Shown one piece after another: positions 542 through 53,178 of a DNA stretch of 64,000 bases. The notes under the pieces were generated by a model. The model was not told the DNA's origin. It saw nothing but the letters and a program-made list of their open reading frames with translations, and did no database searches. Source of the stretch: Pycnococcus provasolii (taxonomy: Eukaryota > Chlorophyta > Pseudoscourfieldiophyceae > Pseudoscourfieldiales > Pycnococcaceae); assembly GCA_938743325.2 (NCBI GenBank), contig OW568894.1:186001-250000 (forward strand), written 5' to 3'. Every line of letters starts with the position of its first letter. The stretch's first letter is position 1. The position numbers and the translations under genes are program-made.

Positions 542-590
542 CCCTAACCCTAACCCTAACCCTAGCCCTAACCCTAACTCTTACAACCCT
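542..590. repeat. Telomere-like CCCTAA tract in a divergent promoter
   Basis: Four to six near-perfect CCCTAA units (two with one base changed) lie between the ATG at 441 on the minus strand and the ATG at 663 on the plus strand. In the longer plus-strand frame the tract would encode an Asn-Pro run, which argues that this frame is untranslated here and that the transporter starts at 663. It resembles the plant promoter telo-box (AAACCCTAA). Confidence 0.75.
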
Positions 591-662
591 AATCCGACTT
601 CCCTCGGCAGTTCGTCACCCACCTCGGAGAACCTCGGCTCTCCTCCTCGGACCTCGAATCGT

Positions 663-1733
663 ATGGCGTCCATGAACATGGCCATGAAGAAGGCAGCGAA
701 CCACAACTACTCCACGGGGTCCCGTCCTTCTTCAAGCGTGTCATATCCATATAGCTTCGGTTTAACATTTGTGTTTGTCATTTTAATTGTGGCGCAAAGC
801 TTGGCCACGGAACGGTCGTTGAAATCTTCCCATCTTGCGTACTCTCCCTGGCACGCTATTTGTTTATCAGAAGTGATGAAACTTACCGTCAATCTGATAT
901 ACGCCTCATTTCTGTTAGTGCGAGCCCGAGGGTCCAATGTGCTGGTTGCCGACAAACATGTGCTTGCACAACTTCTAATCAGATACATTCTACCGGCGCT
1001 CGGATACACCGCGGCCAACGCGCTCGGACTCTTCGCGGTGGATGCCGCAGGGGCGACCGGTGCGCTCGTCGCGGGACAGATGAGGTTGCCAACGACAGCG
1101 GCCATCTGGCAAGTTGTCATGGGAAAACGAATGTCGATGGCACACTGGACGTGCATCGTCGGAACGGTGACGTGCTGCATCTCGTACGAACTTCTCCGGC
1201 GTCTTGCGCCTGGCAGCAAGGCGAACAACCACCTCTGGCGACTCTACGTGCCTACCCTGCTTGGAAGCGTCGCTAGTGCGATTGCAGGAGCATCCAACGA
1301 ACGACTACTGAAACGCTTCAGCAGCGGCAAGCGCGCGCACAGCAGCATACACAACGCTTGCCTGTGCGCAAACGCTGCTCTCGCGGCACTGGCCATGTCG
1401 CACTTTGCGGAGCCTGCGCCGGACGTACGGTGGAATGCACTACTCGAACCGCCAACCGCGCTTGCGGTGGCTCTTCACGCCGCCGTGGGAATTTGCGTGT
1501 CTGTGATCCTGAAGGACCTCTCGCTACCTCACAAGGCGATAGCCGGAACGCTCGCCGCACCCACTTCCGTCGCGTTTGGGTATGTCGTCTTTGGCAAGCC
1601 GTTCCCCGACGCGCCGCGCGCTGCTGCGCTGCTCGGCGTTGCGATATGCTCGTGCACATTCCACGCGCTGCCCATGCCGACGGATGACAGGTCGGCGCCG
1701 CGCAACGCTGAGGACGAGAAGAAGTTGAGATGA
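663..1733 (+). CDS. Nucleotide-sugar transporter, SLC35A / CMP-sialic acid-UDP-galactose transporter type
   Basis: Predicted Golgi antiporter of 356 aa that would bring an activated sugar into the lumen. The hydrophobic profile suggests about ten membrane segments, starting with SFGLTFVFVILIVAQSL. The loop around 'MRLPTTAAIWQVVMGKRMS' matches the SLC35A signature in which a K/R-x-P/S-T-T-A segment precedes a helix ending in V-x-x-x-R-x-S. The start at 663 (MASMNMAMKK) is preferred over an ATG at 492 because the intervening sequence carries a telomere-like tract. TGTAA follows the stop at 1763-1767. Two GT29 sialyltransferase-like genes lie 19-25 kb downstream. Substrate (CMP-sugar or UDP-galactose) cannot be decided from the sequence. 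Confidence 0.85.
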   Translation: MASMNMAMKKAANHNYSTGSRPSSSVSYPYSFGLTFVFVILIVAQSLATERSLKSSHLAYSPWHAICLSEVMKLTVNLIYASFLLVRARGSNVLVADKHVLAQLLIRYILPALGYTAANALGLFAVDAAGATGALVAGQMRLPTTAAIWQVVMGKRMSMAHWTCIVGTVTCCISYELLRRLAPGSKANNHLWRLYVPTLLGSVASAIAGASNERLLKRFSSGKRAHSSIHNACLCANAALAALAMSHFAEPAPDVRWNALLEPPTALAVALHAAVGICVSVILKDLSLPHKAIAGTLAAPTSVAFGYVVFGKPFPDAPRAAALLGVAICSCTFHALPMPTDDRSAPRNAEDEKKLR

Positions 1734-1762
1734 ATGAAATGATTCGTTTGTGCTACATACAT

Positions 1763-1767
1763 TGTAA
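1763..1767 (+). terminator. TGTAA polyadenylation signal
   Basis: TGTAA lies 30 bp after the transporter stop; the same word recurs behind many genes here and is the main green-algal polyadenylation signal. Confidence 0.5.
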
Positions 1768-1935
1768 CTTTGATTCCAGCCGTGTAAACATAAATGCCGA
1801 ATCTGCTACAACATCGCGGCGAGTGTGTTTATGCGTCTCTCGTATCCTGCAGCCGTTGTAGCAAAGGAGATGGAGAAAAGGTAAAGTCAAGAATGACGTT
1901 ACAAAAAAAAGGATTAAATCACACGCAGGAGCAAC

Positions 1936-4401: not shown

Positions 4402-4694
4402 CCAAAAATATAAAAGAGAGCAGGATGGCAATTAAAAAAAAAATAAAGGCAGACCCCGAAATTTTAAAAAAAAAACGAGAAAAGCACGACAATATCAACA
4501 AATATCCTATCTGTCAATAGCAAGCTTCAAAAAATTCACGAAAAAAAACCAAAGGACAGCCAGAAGAAGAGCCAAGAAGCGAGCCAAGAGCCACGAGCCA
4601 AGAAGAAAAGCAAATTACGATAAGTACGTGTGAAGTCGAGTTAATTCAAAGACGACATGGCCATGAAGACGACTGGCACGCACTGCTAGGGGCC

Positions 4695-4711
4695 GGGGGG
4701 GGGGGGGGGGG
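4695..4711. repeat. G17 homopolymer
   Basis: Seventeen consecutive G on the plus strand, flanked by further G-rich and C-rich sequence. Confidence 0.9.
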
Positions 4712-5238
4712 CGAACCGGGGTCCCCGGCTGCCCGGGGGAGAGTCCAGAGCAGAGCAGGCCGACTGTGGGGGTTTCCCCCCCCGGGGTGCGTCCCGAAAA
4801 TAACAAAGCAGGCGTCCCCTTAGCTTTCTTCTTCTCTCAAAGGAGGGGGGGCATCATCATCGGACACTCCGGCGAATGCAGCTCTCGAGAGGGTGGTGCT
4901 AATAAACCCCTAATTTCCTTATCGAGTTATCGGTCTTGACTTGGCGGTGTGGGTGAACCCCTAACTCAATGGTCGGCAGTCCTCAGTGGCTCAGTGGTTG
5001 ACCACTTGACCCACATCAACCTCTTTCTTTCTATGTTGATTACTACGTACGCTCGCGTACTATGGTCATCATGGATTCATGGTCGAGAGGGCGGTCGTGT
5101 GAGGTTAACCCCTAACCGGGATACGCCGAACAGCCAAAACCCCCAACATAGTTCGTGCTCATCGGAGCTTCGACCCGAAGATCTGGCGTTACGTTGTAGG
5201 TCTTTGCGAGTTCTTCAATATTGGACGATTTCCAGACC

Positions 5239-5274
5239 GTGTTTGCGCAAACACATTTGTGTTTGCGCAAACAC
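5239..5274. promoter_or_regulatory. Two tandem copies of a perfect 16-bp palindrome
   Basis: GTGTTTGCGCAAACAC is its own reverse complement and occurs twice (5239-5254, 5259-5274) separated by ATTT. The arrangement suggests a binding site for a dimeric DNA-binding protein or an element end. It lies 355 bp beyond the 3' end of the integrase-repeat gene. Confidence 0.6.
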
Positions 5275-5628
5275 GGGTTGGGAAAGATCGTGCAAAGCCC
5301 TTATTTTAACCCGCTATCCAATTGGGGGCCGGATTAGTGTTTAATAAGTTAGATGTAATTTGTAAACGATGAAGTCTACGCCAGACCGCGTTCAATTTGG
5401 AGACGAATTCGATAAGTTATGCTATTCTAAAGTGTGCGTGTTGCCCGCGTGTATACCTTAAGATTTTCCCGACCATTTACCCCGACCATTAAGGTGATAG
5501 TTTTAGTACCTTAAGCACAAAATGGACCTGTCACGGGTCCGTACGATACATCCCATGGTGCTCCCACCTTAGGCATTTGTTCCCCCACACCCTTATTGTT
5601 TGTTTGTTGGTTACTTGATTTCAAATGA

Positions 5629-7746
5629 TTACGCGCGAGCTTTGCGCTTCAAGGTGTTTGCCACCTTACCAACATCATATCCGAGGAAGTCGCCAAACGA
5701 CATCCAGCCCGAGGACTTGTACACCGTATGAGGATTACCCGGAATGTCGTGAGGGCGCGCGCCTGACTTCATCCACGCCTGCCAATCCTCCTTGCTCTTC
5801 AGACCGAGCTTGCGCACGTACGCGCGCGCATCCTCGAACGTGCGAAACGAGCCTGCCACCTTGCCCACTGCAAATCCGAGGAAGTCGCCGTACGATGTCC
5901 AGCCCGAGGACTTGTACGTCCTCTCAGGAGTGCTCGGAATATCGTGAGAACGCGCATCTGACTTGCGCCACGCCTGCCACTCCTTCTTGCTCTTCAGACC
6001 GAGCGTGCATACGAAAGTGCGCGCATCCTCGAAACTGCGAAATGAACCACGCGCACCTTGGCCGTCTGCATATCCGAGGAAGTCGCCATATGACGTCCAA
6101 CCCGATGACTTGTACGTCCTCTCAGGATGGCTTGGAATGTCGTGAGGCCTCGCGCCTGACTTCCTCCACGCCTCCCACTCCTTCACGCTCTTCAGACCGA
6201 GCGTGCATACGAAAGTGCGCGCATCCTCGAAGCTGTGAAATACGCCGCGCGCACCTTGGCCGTCTGCATATCCGAGGAAGTCGCCATATGACGTCCAACC
6301 CGATGACTTGTACATCTGATCAGGATGGCTCGGAATATCGTGCGGCCTCGCACCGGATTTGCTCAACGCCTCCCACTCCGTAACGCTCTTCAGACCGAGC
6401 GTGCGCGCGTACGTGCGCGCATCCTCGAAGCTGCGAAAGTTTGACTCTTTTGGTTTTTCTGCCTGCTTGCGCATCTTGCACCCGAGGAAAGCGCCCCACG
6501 ACGTCCAACCCGATGACTTGTACGCCGTTTCAGGTCTGCCCGGAATGTCGTGCGGGCGCTTGCCTGACGAACTCCACGCACGCCACCCCCTCTCGCCCTT
6601 CAGACCGAGCGTGCGTACGTATGCGCGTGCATCCTCGAAGCTGCGACACGAGCCGCGCGCACCTTGGCCCTCCGCGTATCCGAGGAAGTCGCCGTATGAC
6701 GTCCAACCCGATGACTTGTATGTCACATTAGGAGCGCTCGGAATGTCGGGCGGTCGCGCGCTTGTCTTCCTCAACGCAAACCACTCCCTTGCGCTCTTCA
6801 GACCGAGCGTGCGCACGTAAGTGCGCGCCTCCTCGAATGTGCGAAACGAGCCAGCCACCTTGCCTACTGCAAATCCGAGAAAGTCGCCGTACGACAGCCA
6901 GCCTGATAACGCGTACGTCACATCAGGATTGGCCGGAATGTCGTGCGGCTGCGCGCCTGACGAAATCCACTCCCTCCACGCATCCCGGCTCTTTAGACCG
7001 AGCGTGTGCACGTACGCGCGCGCCTCCTCGAACGAGCGAAACTCGCCAGCCACTTTGCCCACTGCATATCCGAGGAAGTCGCCGTACGACGTCCAACCCG
7101 AGGACGCGTACATGGTCTGAGGAGCGCTCGGAATGTCGTGCGGTCGCGCACCTGACTTCCTCCACACCCACCACTCCGCCGTGCTCTTCAGACCAAGCGT
7201 ACGCACGTAGTCGCGCGCATCCTCGAACGACTTATACTCGAAGTACACACCTATGCGAGACACCGCGTGTGCCGTCTTGTACATCTCACGCAAAACGTCA
7301 CGCATACGCTCGAACGTCGTCGTATATCCACAAACGCCGCGGCGGTGTACCCACAGCTCAAGCAAGTAGTATGCGCGCATACTGCGAGCGTCGCCTAGCC
7401 ACGTACTCGACGCTGCCGCCTTGTCCTTAGTCAAGCACGTGTATGCCGCTCTCACCTGCTCTTGCAAGTACGGCGCGTCTCCCTCAACCAGTCGACGCTG
7501 GTACTCCGCCGGCCACACTTCGACGCTCTCCGGTGGTGCTTGCAGCACCGCCTTCTCGAGTATGCTTGGGTCAAGGTCGACCTCACACAGCACGCTCTTA
7601 AGCTCCGGAATCAGCTCACCCCGTGCGAGCTGCTTATGTTCACCACATCTTCTTGCGTCGTCCAGGTCCATAGGCGCACTCGAGGTATTCGAAGACACGA
7701 TGTTGTCGGGCGCTGCGTTTGTCATCGTTTGGTCTTGTGCACTCAT
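5629..7746 (-). CDS. Protein with eight tandem 'phage-integrase repeat'-like units
   Basis: 705 aa from an ATG at 7746. The first ~165 aa are unrecognised. Eight units of about 65 aa follow, each of the form SFEDARxYVRTLGLKS, then a W-containing segment, then SGARPHDIPxxP, then YKSSGWTSYGDFLGY. The protein ends in a basic tail (LKRKARA), a possible nuclear signal. The repeat resembles the unit found N-terminal to some marine bacterial integrases and in algal and giant-virus-type proteins (Pfam calls it a phage integrase repeat); I assign this from memory. No tyrosine-recombinase catalytic domain is present, so the array is probably DNA-binding rather than recombinase. It is divergent from a helicase gene 1.04 kb away. 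The repeat region spans about 5650-7240. Confidence 0.75.
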   Translation of the reverse strand: MSAQDQTMTNAAPDNIVSSNTSSAPMDLDDARRCGEHKQLARGELIPELKSVLCEVDLDPSILEKAVLQAPPESVEVWPAEYQRRLVEGDAPYLQEQVRAAYTCLTKDKAAASSTWLGDARSMRAYYLLELWVHRRGVCGYTTTFERMRDVLREMYKTAHAVSRIGVYFEYKSFEDARDYVRTLGLKSTAEWWVWRKSGARPHDIPSAPQTMYASSGWTSYGDFLGYAVGKVAGEFRSFEEARAYVHTLGLKSRDAWREWISSGAQPHDIPANPDVTYALSGWLSYGDFLGFAVGKVAGSFRTFEEARTYVRTLGLKSAREWFALRKTSARPPDIPSAPNVTYKSSGWTSYGDFLGYAEGQGARGSCRSFEDARAYVRTLGLKGERGWRAWSSSGKRPHDIPGRPETAYKSSGWTSWGAFLGCKMRKQAEKPKESNFRSFEDARTYARTLGLKSVTEWEALSKSGARPHDIPSHPDQMYKSSGWTSYGDFLGYADGQGARGVFHSFEDARTFVCTLGLKSVKEWEAWRKSGARPHDIPSHPERTYKSSGWTSYGDFLGYADGQGARGSFRSFEDARTFVCTLGLKSKKEWQAWRKSDARSHDIPSTPERTYKSSGWTSYGDFLGFAVGKVAGSFRTFEDARAYVRKLGLKSKEDWQAWMKSGARPHDIPGNPHTVYKSSGWMSFGDFLGYDVGKVANTLKRKARA

Positions 7747-9765: not shown

Positions 9766-9814
<49 letters not shown>

Positions 9815-15426: not shown

Positions 15427-15458
15427 TACACAAAGGGTTAGGGTTAGGGTTAGGGTTG
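15427..15458. repeat. Interstitial telomere-like (GGGTTA)n tract
   Basis: Four consecutive GGGTTA/GGGTT units lie about 110 bp upstream of the ATG at 15566. The unit is TTAGGG type, not the TTTAGGG of most land plants. Confidence 0.85.
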
Positions 15459-20444: not shown

Positions 20445-21797
20445 ATGCTCCCCATTCTCGCCTTGCAGCGTAACCGAGGCCTGCTCAGCGACCTCACGAA
20501 GCGTGTCCTGCCCGGTGGTGCACCGCCGAAAACGATAACGAGGTGGTTCACGCGACTTACTACCAGACACTTCTACCTGCTCGGATCGCTTCTGCTCATA
20601 AACGTGCTCTGGCTCCTGCCGTCCGCACAAGTCGAAAACCCGGCGCAAGTACTACCGCTCAAGGAGAACAGTGCGCAGAAAGCCGAGTTGTCGAACGTCG
20701 TCAGCGCGGAGCAGAGTGCTTTGGCAGAAGGTGAGAAAACAAGCGCGGAAAAGGACGGCGACGAAGCGGACGACGGCGACGAAACGAGCGACGCAAGAGA
20801 CTCCAACGCCGACTCGGATGCTGACGGCGGTGACGGTGACGGTGACGGCGACGGCGATAACGACGAGGATGCGGAGGAGGAAACGACGACGGCTGCGCCA
20901 AGACCTGCAGCGGTACGCACAACCACGGAGGCGCCGAAGGAGCTGCCTGGTGCTTACAAGCGACTGTGGGCTCAGCTCCGCAAGCAGCCAACCATATTCA
21001 CGCGTCGGCGGCTAAAACAGCGCGGCCAAATAAGCTGCGGGGGCAGTGGGTGCGTGGTGTACAAGACGTGGGATGCCATCTCCTTCGCACATCCCGCGCT
21101 GAACCTCACGCTCCCGCAGGACATGCCGCCGCTTGCGTCCATCGCGTCGATGGTGGAGGGCGGGTGCAAGCGCGGCTCGAAGGACCCGTCGTGCAACCCG
21201 AAGAGCATGCGCGAAATTGGCCGCGATTCCACGTCAGAAGTTTCGCGGCCGCGCTGCGCCGTCGTGGGCAACAGCGGGAAGTTGCGTTGGGAGCAGCACG
21301 GAGCCGCCATCGACGCGACGGACATCGTCATCCGGTTCAACCAGGGTCGAACGAAGGGCTTCGAGCGGCAGGTTGGGCGCAAGAGCACCTTCCGCATCTA
21401 CAACGGGCCGTACGTCGAGCCGAAGCAGGCTGGCGAGGTGACGATCGCGCAGCTGCGCGACCCGGCCATCAAGGCGTGGGTGAAGAGCGTCGAGAAGCAC
21501 AGCGACGTGCTCGCTTACATGTTCGACCCGGAGTTTCTGTGTCTCGCTTGGCAGTGGGCGGGCAAGGAGGGCGACAAGCCGTCGTCCGGCCTCGTCGGCA
21601 TCCTGTTCGCGCTGTCGATGTGCCGCTTCGTCGACGTGTACGGCTTCCAGTACGACGCGTACTTCGACGAGACGATGCGTCCTCACTACTACGACTGGGA
21701 GCGTCCGAAGCCGGGTCGCGAGAATGCGCACCCGTTCAGCCGCGAGATGAGCCTATACTTGCTGCTTCAGGCGACGGGAAAACTGAAGCTGCACTGA
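20445..21797 (+). CDS. GT29 sialyltransferase-like glycosyltransferase
   Basis: 450-aa type II Golgi enzyme. The membrane anchor is at about 42-58 (FYLLGSLLLINVLWLL), followed by an acidic Asp/Glu-rich stem (about 95-155). Sialyl motif L is at ~268-300 (RCAVVGNSGKLRWEQHG, then IDATDIVIRFN), motif S at ~378-400 (PSSGLVGILFALSMC and VYGF), and the VS-like His/Glu at ~429 (HPFSREM). These are the CMP-donor-binding landmarks of GT29. Green plants and algae carry GT29 proteins although canonical sialic acid is doubtful there; Kdo-type CMP sugars are an alternative donor. ATG at 20445 is the first within this frame, which is open to 20178. A second GT29 gene lies 3.8 kb away in the opposite orientation. 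Confidence 0.88.
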   Translation: MLPILALQRNRGLLSDLTKRVLPGGAPPKTITRWFTRLTTRHFYLLGSLLLINVLWLLPSAQVENPAQVLPLKENSAQKAELSNVVSAEQSALAEGEKTSAEKDGDEADDGDETSDARDSNADSDADGGDGDGDGDGDNDEDAEEETTTAAPRPAAVRTTTEAPKELPGAYKRLWAQLRKQPTIFTRRRLKQRGQISCGGSGCVVYKTWDAISFAHPALNLTLPQDMPPLASIASMVEGGCKRGSKDPSCNPKSMREIGRDSTSEVSRPRCAVVGNSGKLRWEQHGAAIDATDIVIRFNQGRTKGFERQVGRKSTFRIYNGPYVEPKQAGEVTIAQLRDPAIKAWVKSVEKHSDVLAYMFDPEFLCLAWQWAGKEGDKPSSGLVGILFALSMCRFVDVYGFQYDAYFDETMRPHYYDWERPKPGRENAHPFSREMSLYLLLQATGKLKLH

Positions 21798-22310: not shown

Positions 22311-22521
22311 AGCCAAAATACAGTACTTACACGCGTAACGTTGTAACACTTCAAATGTGTTCTGCCAAGAAACAGCTGCCCTTAAGCGTGATGTGATGAG
22401 AACTCAACGGCCTGAGAAGCGAGAAGCGTGACAGAAGGAAAACTATGATTTATGAAGGACAACGAAAAGTGTAACCCTAACCCCTTGTCCAGAAACCCTA
22501 ACAGTGTCCCTACCAGGTCAA
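22311..22521. repeat. Dispersed repeat, copy A
   Basis: About 210 bp, beginning AGCCAAAATAC and ending CCTACCAGGTCAA, closely matches 27430-27631 in the same orientation with small indels. The inner part carries CCCTAACCCC and AAACCCTAAC telomere-like words. No coding potential is visible. Confidence 0.85.
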
Positions 22522-25601: not shown

Positions 25602-26552
25602 CTACAGCAAGGTGAGCAGTCCGTGGTTCGCCAAGTCGGTTATGCATCGGCGCTCACCCTTCATGTTGTGCAGCAACGTGCGAGAGCGGCGCGTGATAGG
25701 CGATAGATCGGATCCTCCGTATTCGTCGTCCTGCTCCTCACCTCGTTGGCTTGAGCGCTCGCTGGGACTTAAGCTCCGCCGCCGCTCCTCCGCCGCCTCC
25801 TTCCGCGCGCCACCGCCACCGCCACCGCCACCTCCACCTCCTTTTCTCACGTCGACGGCAGGCGGCATGTCCGCGAAACGCCACTGGTCGATTTGCCACG
25901 ACTTGTTGCGCAGCCAGAACTTCTTTCCCTTGTGCGGCCCGTTCTTGGTTTTCGGCCGTTTGTCGAAGTACCACGCCTTGAGCGTCTTGCCCGCCGTGAA
26001 GCCGTACGCGGTGACGCGCTCGCACACGTGCATGAGCATCACCGCGCACACGAACCCGCTCGTCGGCTGTTCTTTGTACACCGCCTCGATGTTCTTCTCG
26101 GCGTACCTCATGAAGCGCGGGTTGATGGGGTGGATTTTCTTCGCCATCATCTTCGGCAGACGATCCGCGCGCGGGTTCTGAATGTGCCACTTGCCGACGA
26201 GCGCCTCCATCGCGTGTTCGCGCATGCCCTGGTACGCCTCGTTCGTGAAGCGCACCGTCGTTCGTGATCCGACGTCCACTTCGTGTCCCTTGGTCGGCGC
26301 GTTGTTTAACCTGAGTATGACGTCGTTCTCGTCAATCTGTTTCCCCAGCCTTTTCTTTTTCAGCGTCGAGCTGCTTGAGACGATGGCGCAGTTTCGAAAT
26401 TTAGCGTTACCGAGTTCTTTTTTCGGTTGGTTCGGCTTCCACTTCACGCCAAAGACGTCCGTATCCGGCAGCGCGCGCATGACATCGTCCGTCACAAAGG
26501 TACCCGGCGGGAACTGCTTTGCGTCGTCGCGTCCGACGGTTGTTTTGTGCAA
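25602..26552 (-). CDS. Second GT29 sialyltransferase-like gene, 5' end incomplete
   Basis: The frame encodes a GT29 catalytic region: an L-type motif 'NCAIVSSSSTLKKKRLG' followed by 'IDENDVILRLNNAPTKG', and an S-type motif 'PTSGFVCAVMLMHVC' followed by 'VTAYGF'. The L motif has SSSS where most enzymes have GNSG. The tail is Gly- and Arg/Ser-rich. No ATG opens the frame: it stays open to about 26665, reading plausible sequence (CTSPRPTPPCLDGAFKGG), so an upstream exon with the start and anchor must lie further right. Together with the gene at 20445 and the transporter at 663 it suggests a CMP-sugar glycosylation pathway. Donor and acceptor unknown. Confidence 0.75.
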   Translation of the reverse strand: MHKTTVGRDDAKQFPPGTFVTDDVMRALPDTDVFGVKWKPNQPKKELGNAKFRNCAIVSSSSTLKKKRLGKQIDENDVILRLNNAPTKGHEVDVGSRTTVRFTNEAYQGMREHAMEALVGKWHIQNPRADRLPKMMAKKIHPINPRFMRYAEKNIEAVYKEQPTSGFVCAVMLMHVCERVTAYGFTAGKTLKAWYFDKRPKTKNGPHKGKKFWLRNKSWQIDQWRFADMPPAVDVRKGGGGGGGGGGGARKEAAEERRRSLSPSERSSQRGEEQDDEYGGSDLSPITRRSRTLLHNMKGERRCITDLANHGLLTLL

Positions 26553-26605
26553 GGTGAGCCAACCTCCTTTGAACGCGCCATCTAGGCACGGCGGCGTAGG
26601 TCGAG

Positions 26606-27048
26606 GTGACGTGCATCCTCGCTCAGGGTCAAAGAGCGCCGGTGAATGCGACGACCCATATCCCAGCGTTTAGCGCAGGATTCGAAGACGGCGTGGCTAC
26701 CCTAGTCACGTACTCTTGCGTCGTCGTGATTGACTTGCGCGCTTTCTCAACGAGCGAAACCCCGGGCGACTCCCAATTGGAAGACGAAGACGACGAAGAC
26801 GAAGAAGAGCTGTACGCGGCGTTGTACGCGTTGCGGTACGGCGACGCCATACATAACACCTTAAGACGAGCATTCGTGCCAAGACAAGTGACCGCGAGTG
26901 AGTGTGCCTATGTCGGCAAGTGCAAGGACGCGCCGGGTGCTCTGTGCAAGGCCAAGTGGCAGTCTAATTACTGCACCGGCGACAAGTTCGGATGCGTGAA
27001 CTGCGACAACGATGCCAAAGGCAGTTGGTGCATGCCCCAGGTGAGAAA
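26606..27048 (+). CDS. Possible Cys-rich exon, antisense overlap with GT29 5' region
   Basis: An open frame without ATG reads a hydrophobic stretch (GVATLVTYSCVVVIDL), an acidic run coded by a GAC/GAA repeat, then a Cys-rich segment with eight Cys in 45 residues (AYVGKCKDAPGALCKAKW, YCTGDKFGCVNC). A GTGAGA donor follows 'WCMPQ' at 27041-27046. It may be one exon of a secreted protein whose other exons I cannot place, or a relic; the downstream sequence is microsatellite. It competes with an upstream extension of the GT29 frame on the other strand. Confidence 0.3.
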
Positions 27049-27149
27049 TGGCCAGATTATAGGCAAAAGTCGGCGTTTTTGGCCAGATTATAGGTGGTAG
27101 GTTTGCTTTGGTCGGTATCCCAGGTGGAGAGGCAACAAGTATTTACAAA

Positions 27150-27415
27150 GTGGTGGTGGTGGTGTCCACTCGTGCTGTTGTTGCTGCTGCTGTGCTTGGT
27201 GGTGGTGGTGCTTCAGGTGGTTGTGGTGGTGCTGCTGCTGCTCCTCCTCCTCCTCCTCCTCCTTCTTGTTGTTGTTGATGGTGCTGGTGCTGGTGCTGTT
27301 GTTGTTGTTGTTGTTGTTGTTGCTGCTCCTCCTCCTTGCTGTGGTGGTGCTGCTGCTGCTGCTGCTACTGCTGTGCTTCAGGTGGTGGTGGTGGTGGTGG
27401 TGGTGGGATGGTGGT
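27150..27415. repeat. Compound trinucleotide microsatellite
   Basis: Runs of GTG, TGC, TCC, GTT and CTG triplets follow one another for about 265 bp. Frames across it give homopolymer runs (for example His, Asn, Glu and Gln in the minus frame) and are not credible genes. Confidence 0.85.
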
Positions 27416-27429
27416 GGCGCGCCCGGCAT

Positions 27430-27631
27430 AGCCAAAATACCTGTGTAGTGTGTACTTACACATGTAACTTCAAATGTGTTCTGCCAAGAAACAGCTGGCC
27501 TTAAGTGTGATGTGATGAGCGGCCTGAGAAGGGAGAAGCGTGACAGCGCTAAAGGTGGGAAGGACAACGAAAGTTGAAGGGTAACCCTAACCCCTTGTCC
27601 AGAAACCCTAACAGTGTCCCTACCAGGTCAA
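27430..27631. repeat. Dispersed repeat, copy B
   Basis: About 200 bp matching 22311-22521 in the same orientation. It is followed at once by three AAGAGGTCAAG units (27626-27655). Confidence 0.85.
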
Positions 27632-27776
27632 GAAGAGGTCAAGAAGAGGTCAAGAAGGGGGAAATTCCCGGCTGACCGGTCCAAAACAACACAACCTTGA
27701 AAGAAAAGGGCAAGCTGCTCTGACTTCTCTCTGGACTCTCCGCGGAGGACAGGACAGTTCGCCCTACCCGGTACGG

Positions 27777-27795
27777 TAACCCTAACCCTAACCCA
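27777..27795. repeat. Telomere-like CCCTAA tract
   Basis: Three CCCTAA units in the repeat island; no gene start is near. Confidence 0.7.
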
Positions 27796-28005
27796 GAGTC
27801 TCTTGAGACCGGTGTTGACTTCACTTGCGTACAGCATTCTTCTCGTGCTACTGTACAGTAAGTATTCTTCTCGTGGAGGCTCGTGGAGGCTCCGGAGTTC
27901 ACAGGCCGACAAGTGGTGGACTGATGGGACCCGTTTGACGAGTCCCTTTAAGAAGTCCCTTTAAGAAGTACAGTAGGGTACCTTTATGGTGGCACCTCCT
28001 TTATT

Positions 28006-28627
28006 AGTAGTTCTATCCCGAGAAAAACTCTGGAATACACACACTTCAGGCCGTTGGTAGACGGCCTTCCACTGCTCAGTTTGCCCTGCGGTTTTTTTTG
28101 CTAGAAAGTACTCGCAAAACTACACATGGGAATAACTCGGTTTATCCACGCGATAAGTGCAAGGTGGTGCAATAAATACGGTGCTTGGTTCACTTTTTTT
28201 GGACATTTTTATTGCTTTTCCTCGTTGGGATTTGGTCGGGGAAGGGAAAAAAATTCGGCGCGAGTTTGCAGGAAGAAATCCCTCGTTTCCCCGGTGATCA
28301 GGGAATTGGGGGAGGGGGCACCAAAAATCAGTCCCCCTGTTATGACCATCAAATACTCGGGGGATTCAGCTGAAATTTTCTGTTTTCCCTTCCCCGACCA
28401 AATCCCAACGAGGAAAAGCAATAAAAATGTCCAAAAAAAGTGAACCAAGCACCGTATTTATTGCACCACCTTGCACTTATCGCGTGGATAAACCGAGTTA
28501 TTCCCATGTGTAGTTTTGCGAGTACTTTCTAGCAAAAAAAACCGCAGGGCAAACTGAGCAGTGGAAGGCCGTCTACCAACGGCCTGAAGTGTGTGTATTC
28601 CAGAGTTTTTCTCGGGATAGAACTACT
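28006..28627. repeat. Perfect 245-bp inverted repeat with 132-bp spacer
   Basis: Left arm 28006-28250 and right arm 28383-28627 are exact reverse complements over every segment I compared, including A/T runs of equal length. Transcription would give a very long hairpin. Each arm encodes the same short hydrophobic peptide (MVHFFWTFLLLFLVGIW) in opposite directions, a by-product of symmetry. It could be a foldback transposon, an inverted duplication, a source of hairpin RNA, or an assembly artefact. No flanking target duplication was found. Confidence 0.9.
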
Positions 28628-28696
28628 TATGCTTTCTGACTCTCTTGATAAATAGAAAATTGCTCGTTTTTTTTGCACTGGTTTCAACGGCCTTGC

Positions 28697-28935
28697 AGGT
28701 CGCAGTTGGGGGCTCGTCCCAACCACGGCCAAGGCGGGGTCGACTTTGGTCGCAGGCGCAAGGCGGACCCGGGGGCTCGGCCTGGTCGCAAGCGCACAAC
28801 GGGCGACTTTTGTCGCAGGCGAAAGGCGGACCCGGGGGCTCCGCCTGGTCGCAGCCGCAAGGCGGGCGACTTTGGTCGCAGGAGAAAGGCGGACCCGGGG
28901 GCTCCGCCTGGTCGCAGGCGCAAGGCGCATGGCGT
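28697..28935. repeat. 63-bp GC-rich tandem array, about 3.5 copies
   Basis: Unit starts at 28748, 28811 and 28874 (each beginning (G/T)GTCGCAGG), with partial units at both ends. One plus-strand frame gives Gly/Ser/Trp/Gln repeats of 21 aa (GRLWSQAQGGPGGSAWSQ) after a hydrophobic lead, but it has no ATG, so translation is unproven. Confidence 0.85.
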
Positions 28936-28945
28936 CATCGTAGGA

Positions 28946-29272
28946 GGTGGTGGCGCGCGTAGCGGCGCAGCCGCAGCATGAGGTGTTCAGCTGGTGAGCT
29001 GGGTGACTGGTGAGGCGTAAGTATACCTCATGTAAGTTAATGTTGTAACAACTTCCTGAACATCAAACCAACATGGTGGGGAAAGACTAAAGAAGGCGAC
29101 CTTAAGGGAGAGTGGGTTGACCTTAAGATTGTATACAACGAGATGTTGTTCACAATGTTACAAGATTAACTTACATGAGTTAACTCACACATTAACTCAC
29201 ACCCACTAGTCACCCAGTAAGCCAGTCTTCAAGCCCAACACCTCATGCTGCGCCGCTACGCGCGCCACCACC
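28946..29272. repeat. Imperfect inverted repeat of about 110-bp arms
   Basis: The left arm (28946 to about 29051) and right arm (about 29156-29272) share reverse-complement blocks: GGTGGTGGCGCGCGTAGCGG, AGCATGAGGTGTT, TGGGTGACT, and CATGTAAGTTAAT, with indels between. It looks like an older foldback element next to the perfect one. Confidence 0.75.
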
Positions 29273-29949
29273 GCCTGGGCACGAGTCTGCTGGGATGGAG
29301 GAGCACAGGGGGAGGGATAGACTTTTTAGTATGGAAAACCGTGCTAGCTTCTATATTTCAACGGTAGTATGTTCTAGGGTTACGCTTAGGGTTCGAGTCT
29401 GGTTGAATATTTTTTCCAAGGTTTTTTTTCAACCAATGAAGGCTCCCAGACAGCCCATAGCCCAGACCTAAGACCCCACTATCGGCGAGCCCCAAGCCTC
29501 GACCTTTGCTCCCGTTGCAAGAAGAGGCCGCTTTGCTCCCTGTTGGGAGGAGCCCCCAGCTACGACCTTTTGCTCCGTTGGGGACCTGGGCAGAAAAAGA
29601 AACACAACTCTCCACTCCCCAAAAGAAAACAACAGACCGGTGGAAGAGCGTCGAGGTCTCCCTTCTCCCTCGTCAGGTGTGGTGTACTGTTGTGTGCTCT
29701 GGGAAGTGTGTAAGGTACGGGTATTGTGTGTTATCTATTGGGAAGAAAACAACAGACCTGTACATAGCGGGTATGTACAGGGGTACACGGCGGGTACTGT
29801 ACTGTACATAGGGGAATAGCTAGGGTGGGTATTCCGCTCCCCCCCCCCTTTCCTTCCCGCAGACTTTGACTTTTAACTCGTCGGATAAAGCCTTGCTCCC
29901 CCTCGGCCAGTCGACTCCCCTCAGTATCCCCTAGCCCTTTCTGACCCAT
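29273..29949. other. 5' region of MORN gene
   Basis: No gene seen. TAGGGTTACGCTTAGGGTT (29374-29392) is a degenerate telomere-like motif about 560 bp upstream of the MORN start. An imperfect pair ATATTTCAAC / GTTGAATAT flanks it. Confidence 0.45.
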
Positions 29950-31441: not shown

Positions 31442-31696
31442 CTAGTAGATTTTACATGTATGTTCAAAGATGTTTAGGACGATGACGCACCACCAGCGCG
31501 CACCTTCGAACGCCTTGCACACCTGCTTGTGTCCAGCCTTCCAGTCGGACACTTGGCACTCGCGCGAGCAGTGTCTTACCTTGCCGCAACTTTGGCTGTT
31601 GCTTTTGGGTGTGGGGGTTTGGGGGTTTGGGGGTTTGGGGGTTTGGGGGTTTAGGTTTGGGGGTTCATTTAATAAATTAGTTCGGATGGGTCCCAT
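31442..31696 (-). pseudogene. MYND-finger gene fragment (C-terminal half of the finger)
   Basis: An 84-codon frame with ATG at 31696 reads the distal half of a MYND zinc finger (CGKVRHCSRECQVSDWKAGH, then KQVC). The first zinc-binding CxxC pair is missing; in its place is an Asn/Pro/Thr run coded by the CCCCCAAA-type repeat at 31612-31667. Either an upstream exon supplies the first half, or this is a relic cut off by the repeat. The start lies only 51 bp from the ATG of the divergent ALG6 gene. Confidence 0.5.
31612..31667. repeat. (GGGGGTTT)n octamer repeat
   Basis: Six to seven GGGGGTTT units, the last altered to TTTAGGTTTGG. It resembles a degenerate telomere-type repeat and lies 80-135 bp upstream of ALG6. 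Confidence 0.85.
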
Positions 31697-33353: not shown

Positions 33354-34007
33354 TGTAGTAGAGTAGAGTAGAGTATAGTATTTCACCACACTCACGACCC
33401 AACGCCTTTCACCACGTAGAGGTCCACCTGAAGTGGTCCACTTCCCCTGAAGCGATGCTTACCACATGTCCACCCCTTAAGCGTCGTTCGGCTGAGAGGC
33501 TCAGACTAAACCAAGCTCCTGAAGGCTGACGAGCAAGCGCCACCCTGAGCTGTATAGCGATAGAGCTATAGAGGTGATCGAAATCCTCTAACTAAGGTTC
33601 CAAAAAAGTAGGAGAGAGAGAGGTGTCACGCAACACCACCAACACGCCCTCCAAACCACCCGAACCCTAACCCTAACAACCCTAACCCGAGAGCTCCCCC
33701 TAAACCCCTAACTGGAAAGGTATCCCCAGGCATCCGAACTTCCATAGACTATCGGGTGCAGAAATTCCCTCTCGGGCCCAATTGGTTATCTTCTCTTGGA
33801 GTGGCTTTTTCGAGTGGCTTTTTCGAGTGGCTTTTTCGCACTCCCTCCCGCGCAGTTAGTTCCCCGTACGGTTAGGTTAAAGGGGGGGGGCTTTTTGCAG
33901 ATACGTACACACGCTCCCCCCCCCCCCCCCCCCATTCCAAACCCAATCCACATTATTATTATCGAAAAGTTGCTCGCGTTTGTTTCCTTTAGTGGGTCCA
34001 TCAAACC
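33354..34007. promoter_or_regulatory. Upstream region of TCAIM-like gene with telomere-like motifs
   Basis: Contains CCCTAA words at 33664-33689, AAACCCCTAAC at 33702-33712, a thrice-repeated GAGTGGCTTTTTC (33799-33838) and a C18 run (33916-33933). No gene seen. Confidence 0.55.
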
Positions 34008-36530: not shown

Positions 36531-37795
36531 ATTGCTGCAAGCTAAGACAAGTTAAGACAAGTAAAAAGACTACCACTAGTAAGCAAGTTACTAAGACGGA
36601 GGAGCCTTACCAAACTTCAGACTTAACTTCTTAACTTCAAACGTGCTCTGTGTGCGGCCAGGAAAGCTACGAGCACTGAAGCGGAAGCGGAAGCGGAAGA
36701 AGTTGGGGCGCCCGACGTTTTCTCGCGGCTTGCAGGGTCCCGTCCCACCGGCCGGCCGGGGTGGGGGGAGTTGTCGCACCTTAACCAGCCAGCGCCCACG
36801 AATGCGGTGGGCCCCACCCCGATGCCGAGGGGAGGCCGAGGGGAGTTTTGCCCGACTTGCCCCCCCCTCCCTCCCGAAGGAGCCCCCACCCGACGCCCAG
36901 ACATTTGACGCGCCCACCACAGTCCACCCCACCCCACTGGCACACTGCCAAACCAACTTTCTCACTCTCTTCAGACAGTAGTCTTTTGCACTTGCAGTAC
37001 CCTACCCGGTGGACAGGGAGGAGGGAGGTGAGTTAGGGAGGTTACCTTAAGGAGGGAGGTTGGAGTGTTGGAGTGCCTTTGAGAAAGCATCAGGTGGCAG
37101 GTGCCTCCTTCAGCCGTGGCCATCCCAGTCCACCCCTGTCCACCTGTGTCCACCCGCCTTCAGGGCTTCAGGCTTCAGCACCGGACTGTTGTCTGTTGTG
37201 ACTTGTGTCAGTTGTGTGCAGTGATTATTGTGCACCGTGTTCAATAGTGTGTTGTTGGGCGTAATATGTATGGGTGGTTCCTTTGGGCATATGGATGCCT
37301 AGGGAAGTTTAGTACTACATTGTCACTACGATAAAGGGTCGAAACTGCAAGGCGAGGTTGCTGTCACTAACGGTCGGGGCTGCAAGTCGAGGTTGCTGTC
37401 ACATCTCAAAAGAGGTCGCAGGAACAGGTCGGCAAAACACTAACCCTAGCACCTAACCCTAGCCCTAACTGAGAAAAACCCTAACCCAAGCCAGGCTCAA
37501 CGCTGTGTCGCAGGCTCCATGCGATGCGCCCCTCGCGCGATGTCAGCGTCGATGCGCGTCGCGGCGCAGGCCAGTGCAGTCTGCGACGTCCCTACAGCCT
37601 CCCTACGTGCAGTGCGTAGCTCAGCGGCGCTGTGCGCCGCGCGCATGAGCGCATCATCGCGCCACCAAGTATCTTCTACTGTCTGTATTATGTGCTTTCG
37701 TGACTCTTAACCCCGACTTCGATTCCAATTAATTCAATTAGGGGTTCCACAGACGCACCAAGCCCCTGAGGAGGTTTGGTTTTGGTTTGGTTGAA
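36531..37795. other. Gene-poor 1.26-kb region
   Basis: Overlapping open frames on both strands (36591-36981) are Pro/Arg/Gly-rich and look non-coding. Telomere-like words occur at 37441-37492 (TAACCCTAGC, CCTAACCCTAGCCCTAAC, CCCTAACCC). A 63-codon ATG frame at 37519-37710 has Ala/Ser/Arg composition and no domain. Confidence 0.5.
37440..37492. repeat. Degenerate telomere-like CCCTAA cluster
   Basis: Five CCCTAA/CCCTAG words in about 50 bp, about 300 bp upstream of the kinase gene. Confidence 0.7.
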
Positions 37796-41630: not shown

Positions 41631-42272
41631 TACAGCTGTTCAAAAAAGAATGTCCCGGAACGGTGGGTAATTTCCTTACAGTAGTTGGACCCTCTAACTC
41701 CCTTAATCTTGTAACCATTCTTAAGGTCAACTTCCCCTTGCTTCCACAGAGGTAACTTACTTACGATAGTTTGCTCCGTGACCACTCACTCTTACATACA
41801 TACATCGACAAGTCTTACTACCGTCTAAAGGTACCGGTACTTACGTGGCGCAGTGGCGCTGCCTCAAGTGGCTTTCTCCCCCGGGGGAGTTCTTCGGCTC
41901 TTAGGGCCACCACTAGGGATACGCGACTTGACGTCAACTGCAAGTGCATGTAAGCTTTTTCCAAAATCCAAGGTGATCAATCTCTTTTGCAAAGGTCCAT
42001 GGCACGGACTACAAAACCAACCCCGAACCCCTACGATAACCCCGAATTCAACCAGAAAAGAACCATGAAAAAGGAAACCCCTAACTAGATTGACGGGGAC
42101 TTGATCCGGTATCCCCTTTTCTCTTCCGGAGAGTCTGTACTGAGCCCTGGGCGCCGCCGTCGTGCTCGAAACCACCCTCCTGAACCCTCCATCCTCCTGT
42201 CGCCGACGCCACCAGTGCGTGCGCTCGTGCTTGTTCATTCTTGGCCTTTGTTAGTACCACTTTTCTTTCATC
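41631..42272. promoter_or_regulatory. Upstream region of RPS13 with AAACCCCTAAC
   Basis: No gene seen. AAACCCCTAAC (42075-42085) lies about 190 bp before the ribosomal protein start; in plants telo-box-like words are common in ribosomal protein promoters. Further CCCCGAA words occur at 42022 and 42043. Confidence 0.5.
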
Positions 42273-44728: not shown

Positions 44729-44897
44729 ACGAGCAAGGAGGGGAGCACACACGATACACGACTGGTCACCACCTGGATGGAGGGAGGGGGGCAGATTCGG
44801 CGAATGGCGAATGGCGAATGGCGGCGGCGCTGTGGTCCCTGGAAGTCTGGAACACCCCCAGGGGGGCCAAGTGCCAACCCCAAAACTCCTCTCAAGG

Positions 44898-45119
44898 AAA
44901 CCCCGAACTCAATGCAATGAAACCCCGAACTCCTCTCCATGACTGAAACCCCGAACTCAATGCAATGAAACCCCGAACTCCTCTCCATGACTGAAACCCC
45001 GAACTCCTCTCAAAGAAACCCCGAACTCCTCTCCATGACTGAAACCCCGAACTCAATGCAATGAAACCCCGAACTCAATGAATGAAACCCCGAACTCAAT
45101 TCAATGAAACCCCGAATGA
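44898..45119. repeat. Array of about ten AAACCCCGAA units in a divergent promoter
   Basis: AAACCCCGAA recurs about ten times, with two alternating spacers (CTCAATGCAATG and CTCCTCTCCATGACTG). The unit equals the AAACCCCTAA motif of other promoters here with T changed to G. It sits between THUMPD1 (start 44728, minus) and deoxyhypusine synthase (start 45254, plus). Confidence 0.9.
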
Positions 45120-46456: not shown

Positions 46457-46478
46457 AGTTCAACTCAACAAAATTGAT

Positions 46479-46483
46479 TGTAA
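46479..46483 (+). terminator. TGTAA polyadenylation signal
   Basis: TGTAA 23 bp after the deoxyhypusine synthase stop; TTACA at about 46491 serves the convergent gene on the other strand. Confidence 0.5.
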
Positions 46484-46633
46484 TAATGCTTTACAAGATA
46501 ACTCTCTAATACAAACATCGAATTCATTACGTGTTTTGTGGATAGTGAATGTGAATGGTGTGAATGGACGACTGTTGGACAAAGTAAAGTACATTCAATT
46601 ACTGAATGAGCAATCACAATTGGCGTTTTTTTA

Positions 46634-47848: not shown

Positions 47849-47984
47849 ACCTATTAATAGAATAGGCGACGATGTCACGATGAGGATGACGACGAGGAAG
47901 ATTCGAGAAGAATGAAAGATGAGGTTCCCTCTCCAACCCCTATTCAGACGCGCGGTGATTAGGGGTTTGGGGAAATAGAAAGTA

Positions 47985-47998
47985 GGGGTTAGGGGTTT
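47985..47998. promoter_or_regulatory. GGGGTTAGGGGTTT motif in a divergent promoter
   Basis: Reverse complement is AAACCCCTAACCCC, with a second AGGGGTTTGGGG at 47960. It lies between the TPR gene (start 47848) and SRP9 (start 48078). Confidence 0.6.
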
Positions 47999-48077
47999 CT
48001 GAATTCTCGGGGGGAGCGCCGCCAGACCTCCACCTCCGGATCCTCCTCCCCTCTTCCCTCTTCATTCTTGTACCACC

Positions 48078-48410: not shown

Positions 48411-48413
48411 CGG

Positions 48414-48721
48414 ATGTGCCTTGACCGCCTACCCAAGCAGTTCACCTCGGACGACCTCGTCGTTATCGCTGACCCGATGGTGGCAACCGGCGGTACCGCC
48501 ATCAACGCCGTCCGCGACGTGCTTGACCGCGGCGCGGATGTCAAGAATGTCAGGCTCGTGTGCGCGGTGTGTGCGCCTCCCGCGCTGACGAAGCTTGGTG
48601 ACGAGTTTCCAGAACTCATCATGTACAGTGCGATCGATGATTGACCCCCGAGCTCAACGATAAGGGGTACATCGTCCCAGGTCTTGGAGACGCGGGCGAC
48701 AGAGTGTATGGTACGGAGTAA
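48414..48721 (+). pseudogene. Uracil phosphoribosyltransferase remnant (C-terminal part)
   Basis: The frame reads the PRPP-binding loop 'VVIADPMVATGGTAINAV' and 'VRLVCAVCAPPALTKLGDEF', as in plant/bacterial UPRTase (salvage of uracil to UMP). The N-terminal half is absent. Around 48635-48655 the frame shifts twice (a short GAT duplication and an extra C in a C run), after which 'GYIVPGLGDAGDRVYGTE' completes the normal C-terminus, with stop at 48719-48721. It is a host gene relic joined head-to-tail to SRP9. Confidence 0.8.
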
Positions 48722-49341
48722 GCTGTGACTGCTCATTCAATTGTCTAATAGATTTTACTTTATTCGTCCAACGGTCGTGCATGCACACAATTCACATAAA
48801 TTGTAGTACACCAGTGCCTCGAGCCGGGTAACTCTTCTTGAAAACTTTACTTAACTGCAGCCGAGTTGAAAAGGACGACGACACCAACCGTGTTCCTTCT
48901 CCTCCTGTTGAGACTTAATTTAGCTTTGAGCGGCGAACCACCACCACCATATCCATTTTTAACAACCGCGGTTACAGCGCCACCATGTGCTCGCGCGGCG
49001 TGCAGTCGCGTGGCAGCGTCTCGTGCTCCTGTGTGAGGTTCTCGGCCCGAAGCTCTCTCCCTATTCGCGTCTCGCCTTTGAGGCTTCGACCGGGTCGATC
49101 TCTCGCACGTCACACAAGGTTATTCTTTAGAACTACGCCAGTCGCCCGTACGCCACGCTAGAATGACGTCGGTGTATAATAGGAACTTTTAGCACACGTG
49201 TTATTCTGTGTACATACATACGACACGTTCTAATTATGCATTTAAGAAGATGCAATATCAACATAAGACATACGCTAGATTCAATTTTTATCGGTACATA
49301 ATTTGCATGTCTACAAAAGAACACCAAAATTTGTTTTAGTG
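48722..49341. other. Gene-free intergenic region
   Basis: About 0.6 kb, AT-richer near 49190-49330. Nothing supportable seen on either strand. Confidence 0.5.
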
Positions 49342-50622: not shown

Positions 50623-50715
50623 CACATGTTCTGATATTTCTGATATTTTTTTCTCTGATGGAATAGGCGTTGGCCGATATTGCTATTCGGCGAAACAACG
50701 TCCGAGGAAATTTCG

Positions 50716-50816
50716 GGGTAACCCTAACCCTAGCTGTAAACCAAACCCTAACCCGTAGCCCTAATCTTAGCTGTAACCCTAACCCTAACCCGTAACCCTA
50801 TCGTAGCCGTAACCCT
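50716..50816. repeat. Telomere-like CCCTAA-rich tract in divergent promoter
   Basis: About eight CCCTAA words interleaved with GCTGTAA/CGTAACC variants between GH5 (start 50622) and the gene at 51220. It ends 35 bp before an A22 run. Confidence 0.85.
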
Positions 50817-50851
50817 ACCACTCACTCCCCCCCTTGGATGGAACGCCCTTA

Positions 50852-50875
50852 GAAAAAAAAAAAAAAAAAAAAAAA
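50852..50875. repeat. Poly-A run
   Basis: About 22 consecutive A on the plus strand; could be a retroposed tail, but no gene copy precedes it. Confidence 0.85.
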
Positions 50876-51219
50876 CAAGCTGTGGCAAGTTGTGCAACCT
50901 AGGCACAGCTTATTAGCGGTCGTCGCCCGCCTGAACTGAACGGGAACGGACTGTTCCCAAGCAAAAAACAAAGGGGTACCCTAGGCGGGAAGGAACGGAG
51001 GAGGGGGAGGTCGTCCTGTGACGAGTCCCCGGCCGGTGCCCGGAGGTCGGTCTGGCAAGGGGGAAGGCAAGGGGGAGAGGAAGGGGAGGCAGGATTGTGA
51101 TGTGAAAAGCCATTCCCCGACCTAATCGCTCGACCAAAGCAGAGGCCCCGTTCGTTCTCGGGGCCTCTCTGGAGGGGCCGGGGGCGAACTCCCCATTCTC
51201 GGAACCTCGGAACTCGGCC

Positions 51220-53076
51220 ATGGCGACTCGGGGCCCCTCTGGAGGAATGTCTATGTCTATGTCCACTACTCATGATGTATCTTTTGTGAACCGTCACACG
51301 TCGTCCGTCCGCCTCCCGTCATCCTCAGTCACTACGTCTAGCGATTCCATCAATGCGTTCTTAAGTTACCTGGATTTGAAAAGTTCAGGTTTGCTACGTA
51401 ACCACATGCTCAACTCGGGAAAGGATGAACTTGCGTACATCACCACAAGACATATCACCAAGGAGGGGGGCATACACCACGACGGACACAACCACGTGGG
51501 CTCGTTCTTCAAGGATAAACACAAACTCAGCGACAACCCTGTAGTGCTCAGGAGCGCTGAAGACGCGCTCATACACGGCGACGACGCCGCACGCGTCGAA
51601 AACGAAGTGGACGCATCCCTCGAACTGCACAGACTTCTCACGGGATACTGCACGGAACGAACACGTAAAGGCGTGCAGTTCCTGTGCGTGCACGGGTGGC
51701 TGAGACTCGTGCGCGACCTCGAGGTGCTCGACAACAAACTCGCACTCGGGTCAGCCGTCGCCATCTTCGAGGATGCCAACGACCTCGTCACGAGACCAGG
51801 CCGGAACGGAAACAAGACGGAACTTAAGGCGGACGCCAAGGCGTTTCGACGCATGCTCACACACCTCGCGCAGATGAGGTACCCCTCCTCCGCAAATCCG
51901 CTGCAGACACTCATCGCCTGGCACGCGCCGCTCGCACGAGGAGCGCCGCACACGTCGCGGTATCGGCACCCAGAACCTGGGGTGGCTATGTACCCAGTCG
52001 GATACGACGGCGATGTCGTGACGCCCGGCGACGCACCACCGCCACCTCCGCCCGTCGTCGGCGACGAACTCGACGACATAGCAAGCCTCGAAGCGTGCGC
52101 GCTGCTGAAGAAGTACCGTGCGCCGCTGCGGCGCGTATACGCGCACTACTGCACGCTGTCGCTCATCAGCTGCGTGTACTCGACATGGCCGCATGTCAAA
52201 GGCGCCAATCGCGCGATGAGAGAGGGCGAATTCCTACGCCTTCTGTCCGACTTCTACGCCACGCCATTGCTGCTTGAACGGCAGGAGTGCATATCGGCGT
52301 TTCGAGCCGCAAATCGAGACGCGGAGCTCACGGACCGGCCCGCGAAGGCGGTTGGCAGCTTCCCGCAATTCTGCGAAGCGCTGCTTCGCTGTGCGCTGCG
52401 ATGTGCGTCGAGCCTGCCCAAGAGACTCAGCTCGACGAAAACGGCATGCACTGAGGCTGTCGCGTCGATGAGGCTTGGAGATATGAGCGACGACTTGCAT
52501 GCAAGGCGCAAGCTCGAGACATGCTTCGACAGACGCCGACAGAAGATGGGCATGGCAACAGCACAACGCATTGGAACGACGGACGAAGATTTTATTGCGC
52601 GCGCAGAGCTCGCGCTGGAGACGCAACGTAAGAACGAGCAGCTGAAGAGCCTGCAGGAAATGCCGGTGAAGGAGCGCATGCGGCGAACGGAGATGAAGCG
52701 GCAGAAGGAGGCGCGCGAGGCGGCGGCCGCCAGGCCGCCCTTGCCTCAAATCATTGGCATCCATGGCCCCGTTGCACCTCCCATCAGCCTGGACGTCGTG
52801 ATTGGCGGTCCTTCGAAGACGCAGAGCCGTTCGCCGATGGTGACGCTCGGCGACTTCATAGACGGCGACCGTGGTGAGGCGGAGCTGCGCGGTGACAGCC
52901 GCGGCTCTCAGCTGTCCGCGTTCGAGCGCCTGAATAGCACGCGCACGTTTGCGAACGCGGAGGCTGAGATGAAGGGCTGGCACGCGCTCCCTGACCCTGC
53001 CGCGAGTCCGCATCTGCCTGGCTTTGGTCGTCACGGCGAGAAGACCAATGGAGATTTGTTTGGCGAAGAATTGTGA
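51220..53076 (+). CDS. Unknown 618-aa protein
   Basis: Coding is supported by length and amino-acid usage, but I recognise no family. It is helical with segments such as 'FLCVHGWLRLVRDLEVLDNK', 'CVYSTWPHVKGANRAMREGEF' and 'VGSFPQFCEALLRCALRCA', which recall EF-hand-like helical bundles of ciliary proteins without calcium loops. A Pro run lies near 270. The C-terminal third is charged coiled coil ('RKNEQLKSLQEMPVKERMRR') then a disordered tail. No signal peptide or membrane segment. A ciliary role is speculation, resting on the LC8-like gene elsewhere in the window. Confidence 0.7.
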   Translation: MATRGPSGGMSMSMSTTHDVSFVNRHTSSVRLPSSSVTTSSDSINAFLSYLDLKSSGLLRNHMLNSGKDELAYITTRHITKEGGIHHDGHNHVGSFFKDKHKLSDNPVVLRSAEDALIHGDDAARVENEVDASLELHRLLTGYCTERTRKGVQFLCVHGWLRLVRDLEVLDNKLALGSAVAIFEDANDLVTRPGRNGNKTELKADAKAFRRMLTHLAQMRYPSSANPLQTLIAWHAPLARGAPHTSRYRHPEPGVAMYPVGYDGDVVTPGDAPPPPPPVVGDELDDIASLEACALLKKYRAPLRRVYAHYCTLSLISCVYSTWPHVKGANRAMREGEFLRLLSDFYATPLLLERQECISAFRAANRDAELTDRPAKAVGSFPQFCEALLRCALRCASSLPKRLSSTKTACTEAVASMRLGDMSDDLHARRKLETCFDRRRQKMGMATAQRIGTTDEDFIARAELALETQRKNEQLKSLQEMPVKERMRRTEMKRQKEAREAAAARPPLPQIIGIHGPVAPPISLDVVIGGPSKTQSRSPMVTLGDFIDGDRGEAELRGDSRGSQLSAFERLNSTRTFANAEAEMKGWHALPDPAASPHLPGFGRHGEKTNGDLFGEEL

Positions 53077-53166
53077 CGTTGTTTCTTTCTTTCTATGAGC
53101 CTCACCTTTCTCTTTTTGCGTTATGTCGTAAGTGAGGTGAAGTGAGGGGTGGCAACGCGCGCTCAT

Positions 53167-53178
53167 AAACCCCTAACC
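53167..53178. promoter_or_regulatory. AAACCCCTAACC motif
   Basis: Single copy about 85 bp upstream of the DUF268 start. Confidence 0.55.

What the first reader, a model, noticed from the sequence alone, without database searches (positions are those of the whole stretch)
542..53178. Telomere-like CCCTAA and AAACCCCTAAC motifs mark gene 5' ends
Seen directly: CCCTAA/TTAGGG tracts at 542-590, 15427-15458, 33664-33689, 37440-37492 and 50716-50816, and AAACCCCTAAC-type words at 33702, 42075, 47985 and 53167, lie 80-600 bp upstream of starts at 663, 15566, 34008, 37796, 51220, 42273, 48078 and 53263. Four sit in divergent promoters. Known: plant telo-boxes (AAACCCTAA) recruit TRB proteins and mark ribosomal-protein and housekeeping promoters. 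Inference: this alga uses telomere-derived words as a widespread core or proximal promoter element, beyond classic telo-boxes.
Basis: partly seen in the sequence, partly recalled or inferred. Interest (0 to 1): 0.75.

Follow-up and report, generated by a model that had tools for sequence, protein, structure and literature searches.

The report
Telomere-like repeats between algal genes
Short copies of the chromosome-end repeat CCCTAA lie between the genes of this probable alga far more often than chance allows, but this one stretch of DNA cannot show whether they switch genes on or are just scattered repeats.

Summary
All reported words are present. Telomere-type words rank first among intergenic 7- to 11-mers by number of regions: CCCTAACC is in 10 of 30 regions (0.55 expected); AAACCCCTAAC occurs 4 times (0.014 expected). 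Nine tracts lie between genes, none in genes. The other four lie 566-1305 bp from the nearest modelled start, and two of them are copies of one dispersed repeat.

The promoter claim is not settled. Most intergenic DNA here is upstream of something; convergent gaps are 2.9 of 21.8 kb. Within a region the words are no nearer the start than after random rotation or placement, strand is 6:6, and 75 other short arrays are not distinguishable in placement. Hints for it: whole-intergenic rotation gives P=0.008-0.06 for AAACCC(C), and AACCC(C)TAA lies at -70 to -120 in 7 of 30 genes (corrected P=0.09-0.15).

Best explanation: short interstitial telomeric repeats scattered through non-coding DNA, with possible co-option, for example at ribosomal protein S13. 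A telo-box or Tbf1-like element remains open. No other sequence of the organism was reached.

The parts
542..584 (+). (CCCTAA)n tract, score 35.5, divergent gap between a partial minus-strand gene (start 441) and nucleotide-sugar transporter (663)
   Evidence: would be coding if the start is 492
15434..15457 (-). perfect 4-copy (CCCTAA)n on minus strand, 109-132 bp upstream of FG-GAP protein at 15566
   Evidence: G4-type sequence
33658..33712 (+). degenerate tract ending in AAACCCCTAAC (33702), about 300-350 bp upstream of 34008
37436..37469 (+). degenerate (CCCTAA/CCCTAG)n, divergent gap of a dynein-light-chain-like gene (36530, minus) and kinase (37796)
42075..42085 (+). AAACCCCTAAC, 198 bp upstream of ribosomal protein S13 (42273)
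47988..47998 (-). AAACCCCTAAC; AAACCCCTAAT is 30 bp away at 47958; divergent gap of TPR gene (47848, minus) and SRP9-like gene (48078)
50719..50825 (+). long degenerate tract with internal 18/37-bp period, divergent gap of cellulase (50622, minus) and 51220 gene; nearer to the cellulase start
53167..53177 (+). AAACCCCTAAC, 96 bp upstream of DUF268 gene (53263)
44893..45116 (+). related array, ten AAACCCCGAA units in 22-26 bp repeats, divergent gap of THUMP gene and deoxyhypusine synthase
31607..31665 (-). related (AAACCCCC)n array about 80-140 bp upstream of ALG6/8
4904..5115 (+). three AACCCCTAA words in 210 bp, 504-714 bp upstream of the JmjC gene start (4401, minus)

Best explanation
These are short interstitial telomeric repeats. 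Telomere-type hexamers entered the chromosome at scattered places, most likely by telomerase or template-guided filling of broken ends. They then grew and decayed by slippage, local duplication and copying of a dispersed repeat. They survive between genes and are removed from coding sequence, and because intergenic DNA here is mostly upstream of some gene, they look like promoter marks. Some copies may have been co-opted. Shown here: the excess, its restriction to intergenic DNA, degenerate and duplicated tracts, no demonstrable fixed place or strand. Inferred: telomerase origin, neutrality of most copies, and that this organism's telomere is TTAGGG.
For: Nine tracts in 21.8 kb intergenic, 0 in 42.2 kb genic. 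Four of the nine lie 566-1305 bp from the nearest modelled start. Within-region rotation: 19 of 43 CCCTAA within 200 bp, 19.0 expected, P=0.54. Other short tandem arrays are not distinguishable in placement: 25 of 75 within 200 bp (19.2 expected, P=0.08) against 4 of 7 telomeric arrays (1.8 expected, P=0.08), with little power at n=7. C-rich strand is sense in 6 of 12. Two telomere-bearing sites are copies of one 83%-identical repeat. The 50719-50825 tract has 18- and 37-bp periods besides 6. A published model has telomerase adding single units at broken promoter ends and repair fixing them (PMC3022908, part 1 of 2 of the discussion read).
Against: About 1 tract per 7 kb seems dense for chance insertions (no other genome was measured). 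AAACCCCTAAC has one C more than the telomere unit, yet occurs four times, all within about 300 bp of a start (binomial P=0.03 for 350 bp, 0.05 for 3 of 4 within 200 bp). Rotation over all intergenic DNA favours starts for AAACCC (P=0.013-0.018), AAACCCC (0.008-0.06) and AACCC(C)TAA (0.02-0.16). AACCC(C)TAA peaks at -70 to -120 in 7 of 30 genes (pointwise P=0.016, corrected 0.09 or 0.15). Leaving out the poorly annotated 26481-29949 gap with its three sites makes the closeness to starts P=0.01-0.03.
Confidence: 0.58

Rival explanations
1. A proximal promoter element like the plant telo-box or the yeast Tbf1 site: a Myb/SANT-type telomere-binding protein sits on CCCTAA or AAACCCC(T/G)AAC words about 70-350 bp upstream of start codons, clears nucleosomes and recruits regulators, partly at protein-synthesis genes.
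For: AAACCCCTAAC upstream of S13 and SRP9-like genes, AAACCCCGAA array upstream of deoxyhypusine synthase; 8 of 9 sites within 350 bp if the unannotated gap and its three sites are dropped, P=0.011; whole-intergenic rotation P=0.008-0.06 for AAACCC and AAACCCC; -70 to -120 peak in 7 of 30 genes; AAACCCC 2.5 per kb within 200 bp and 0 beyond 800 bp, though 15 of 26 copies are in two arrays.
Against: No preference for the start after rotation or random placement within regions; no strand bias; variable distance; 13 of 30 genes have none of the words CCCTAA or AAACCCC within 400 bp, including the phosphatase, RTE1-like and 1481-aa genes; site II word (TGGGCY) absent within 400 bp of S13 and only at -378 for SRP9; the distance peak is the best of several words and widths tried.
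Confidence: 0.3
2. The window is subtelomeric, or the words travel with mobile elements, so that the density is local.
For: A telomere-bearing dispersed repeat in two copies and a near-perfect 248-bp inverted repeat nearby; no convincing gene model in 26.5-29.9 kb.
Against: Tracts spread over 50 kb among housekeeping genes; no long array at a window end; apart from that repeat, the self-comparison shows only a 30-bp match between the tracts at 544 and 37440 themselves, no shared flanks (E up to 0.001).
Confidence: 0.1
3. Structure rather than sequence matters: G-quadruplex or i-motif forming tracts near starts.
For: 12 G4-type matches, all intergenic, 11 of them 18-344 bp from a start and the other at 647 bp; 4 of 12 are telomeric.
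Against: A single AAACCCCTAAC word lacks the four C-runs needed to fold so alone (general knowledge); no shuffled control was run.
Confidence: 0.05

Closest known systems
Plant telo-box (AAACCCTA) bound by TRB proteins
   Same: telomere-unit words in 5' intergenic DNA; one at a ribosomal protein gene
   Different: most boxes of plant translation-related genes sit within 50 bp of the transcription start and pair with site II/TEF elements (PMC3022908); here distance is broad, AAACCCCTAAC has an extra C, many sites are tandem. Reported as not enriched in Ectocarpus and lacking in Chlamydomonas ribosomal protein genes (PMC3212954, section 10 read; data not shown there); TRB proteins traced to streptophyte algae (PMC10167121, PMC12616469, passages)
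Tbf1 TTAGGG sites of budding yeasts
   Same: clustered TTAGGG words without fixed orientation or spacing, as in S. cerevisiae (PMC2834713, passages)
   Different: Candida albicans needs TTAGGGN6CCCTAA; no such pair within 20 bp in either order here. No binding protein known here
Short interstitial telomeric sequences
   Same: hexamer tracts of about 2-13 units, often degenerate, inside a chromosome and intergenic
   Different: denser in this window than I would expect (recalled, not measured against other genomes)
Microsatellites enriched in 5' regions
   Same: placement not distinguishable from other short tandem arrays of the window, at n=7
   Different: telomere words are the top-ranked 7- to 11-mers of intergenic DNA, ahead of CA repeats

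Membership tests
Plant-type telo-box promoter element | word AAACCCTA in 5' regions | tested here: inconclusive
   tested as AAACCCTAA: 5 in intergenic DNA (0.2 expected), but 2 of 5 are in a dispersed repeat and 3 of 5 lie over 400 bp from a start; the other repeated word is AAACCCCTAAC
Plant-type telo-box promoter element | narrow peak near the transcription start | tested here: inconclusive
   no start-site data; relative to ATG best corrected P=0.09 or 0.15
Plant-type telo-box promoter element | site II (TGGGCY) partner | tested here: not met
   within 400 bp in 4 of 30 genes; none at S13
Plant-type telo-box promoter element | association with ribosomal protein genes | tested here: inconclusive
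   the one such gene recognised has AAACCCCTAAC within 200 bp
Plant-type telo-box promoter element | bound by TRB/Myb protein | not testable with these tools
   no genome held
Tbf1-type TTAGGG element | clustered TTAGGG words at promoters | tested here: inconclusive
   clusters yes; promoter preference unproved
Short interstitial telomeric sequences | tandem telomere units inside a chromosome | tested here: inconclusive
   nine tracts, none at a window end; the organism's telomere unit and the window's place on the chromosome are not known
Short interstitial telomeric sequences | absence from coding sequence, no shown relation to gene starts | tested here: met
   0 of 9 tracts genic, with the 542 tract doubtful; within-region rotation P=0.54

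The most novel reading that the evidence does not exclude
A non-streptophyte alga uses telomere-derived words, CCCTAA tracts and AAACCCC(T/G)AAC, as a general proximal promoter element with a preferred place 70-120 bp before the start codon, including at ribosomal protein and other protein-synthesis genes, through a telomere-binding protein unrelated to plant TRBs: a third independent recruitment of telomere sequence to promoters after plants and yeasts.
Probability: 0.22. Interest if true: 0.65.

Novelty: new member of a known kind. Interest (0 to 1): 0.36.

Why it matters
If the words are promoter elements outside the streptophytes, then telomere-binding proteins were recruited to housekeeping promoters independently in several lineages, and the published view that telo-box control is specific to land plants (PMC3212954) would need revision. 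If they are neutral insertions, a density near one tract per 7 kb would make this organism a good case for studying how interstitial telomere repeats arise and how promoters could acquire them.

Tried and rejected
Related sequence: S13 protein (5 pattern matches, none confirmed), deoxyhypusine synthase (2 pattern matches, none confirmed) and an exact 36-base piece of the dispersed repeat (none) in viral contigs, a collection where a eukaryote's DNA is not expected. Metagenome scans were capped at 0 and not tried; the one genome-contig scan was not used, as that collection is prokaryotic. Rfam and tRNA scans of the window gave nothing.

An order-4 coding model trained on the window overfitted in leave-one-out and was dropped for a codon-usage model. 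An apparent clustering of words at -75 to -170 that I saw by eye was tested with scan correction: for CCCTAA, and for CCCTAA plus AAACCCC, corrected P was 0.23-0.74 by maximum count and 0.11-0.72 by smallest P (the 0.11 is at -330, not -75); for AACCC(C)TAA it was 0.09-0.38 and 0.15-0.67 over three widths. Strand preference was considered and rejected (6 of 12). A Candida-type palindrome was not found. The AACCCTA hit in an Ostreococcus/Chlamydomonas paper (PMC5508029) is a primer (passages). Placing the organism by its S13 protein failed: the PDB list names no organisms, and from recall its top entries mix plants and fungi.

It gave alternative starts for seven genes; one of the seven entries equals the base start, so six changed.
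Full report
What the window is. It is eukaryotic DNA of about 57% GC with mostly uninterrupted genes. Thirty gene models, one partial and one doubtful, were made from open frames, Pfam matches and codon usage: among them a JmjC protein, helicase, bZIP, two GT29 sialyltransferase-like genes, a DUF285 protein, ALG6/8, a dynein-light-chain-like gene (recognised by eye, no search), kinase, ribosomal protein S13 with one GT-AG intron, a CRM-domain protein, THUMP, deoxyhypusine synthase, an SRP9-like gene (by eye), cellulase, RTE1-like and a calcineurin-like phosphatase. That it is an alga is likely (CRM and RTE1-like proteins) but not proved, and its lineage is unknown. No genome is held. The 26481-29949 stretch has no convincing gene model, so distances there are uncertain. 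The models are mine and no transcript data exist.

Noticed in passing
28003-28250 and 28383-28630: Near-perfect 248-bp inverted repeat (99.6%) with a 132-bp spacer in a stretch without convincing genes; possible hairpin locus, foldback element or assembly artefact.
   Followed up: no
22348-22521 and 27467-27631: Two copies (83%) of a non-coding dispersed repeat whose telomere-word end is identical over the last 51 bp.
   Followed up: partly
44893-45116: Ten-copy AAACCCCGAA array in the divergent THUMP/deoxyhypusine synthase gap; TATA-like words 30 and 66 bp before the likely start 45254.
   Followed up: partly
about 48411-48650: Frame resembling only the C-terminal part of a uracil phosphoribosyltransferase directly after the SRP9-like gene (by eye; no search made).
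   Followed up: no
20445-21797 and 25602-26480: Two GT29 sialyltransferase-like genes on opposite strands flanking a DUF285 EF-hand gene.
   Followed up: no
5629-7746: Frame with 198-bp repeats matching Pfam INT_rpt.
   Followed up: no
46549-46618 and 48724-48797: Inverted 78% similar short non-coding stretches flanking the TPR/SRP9 pair, possibly copies of a small mobile element.
   Followed up: no
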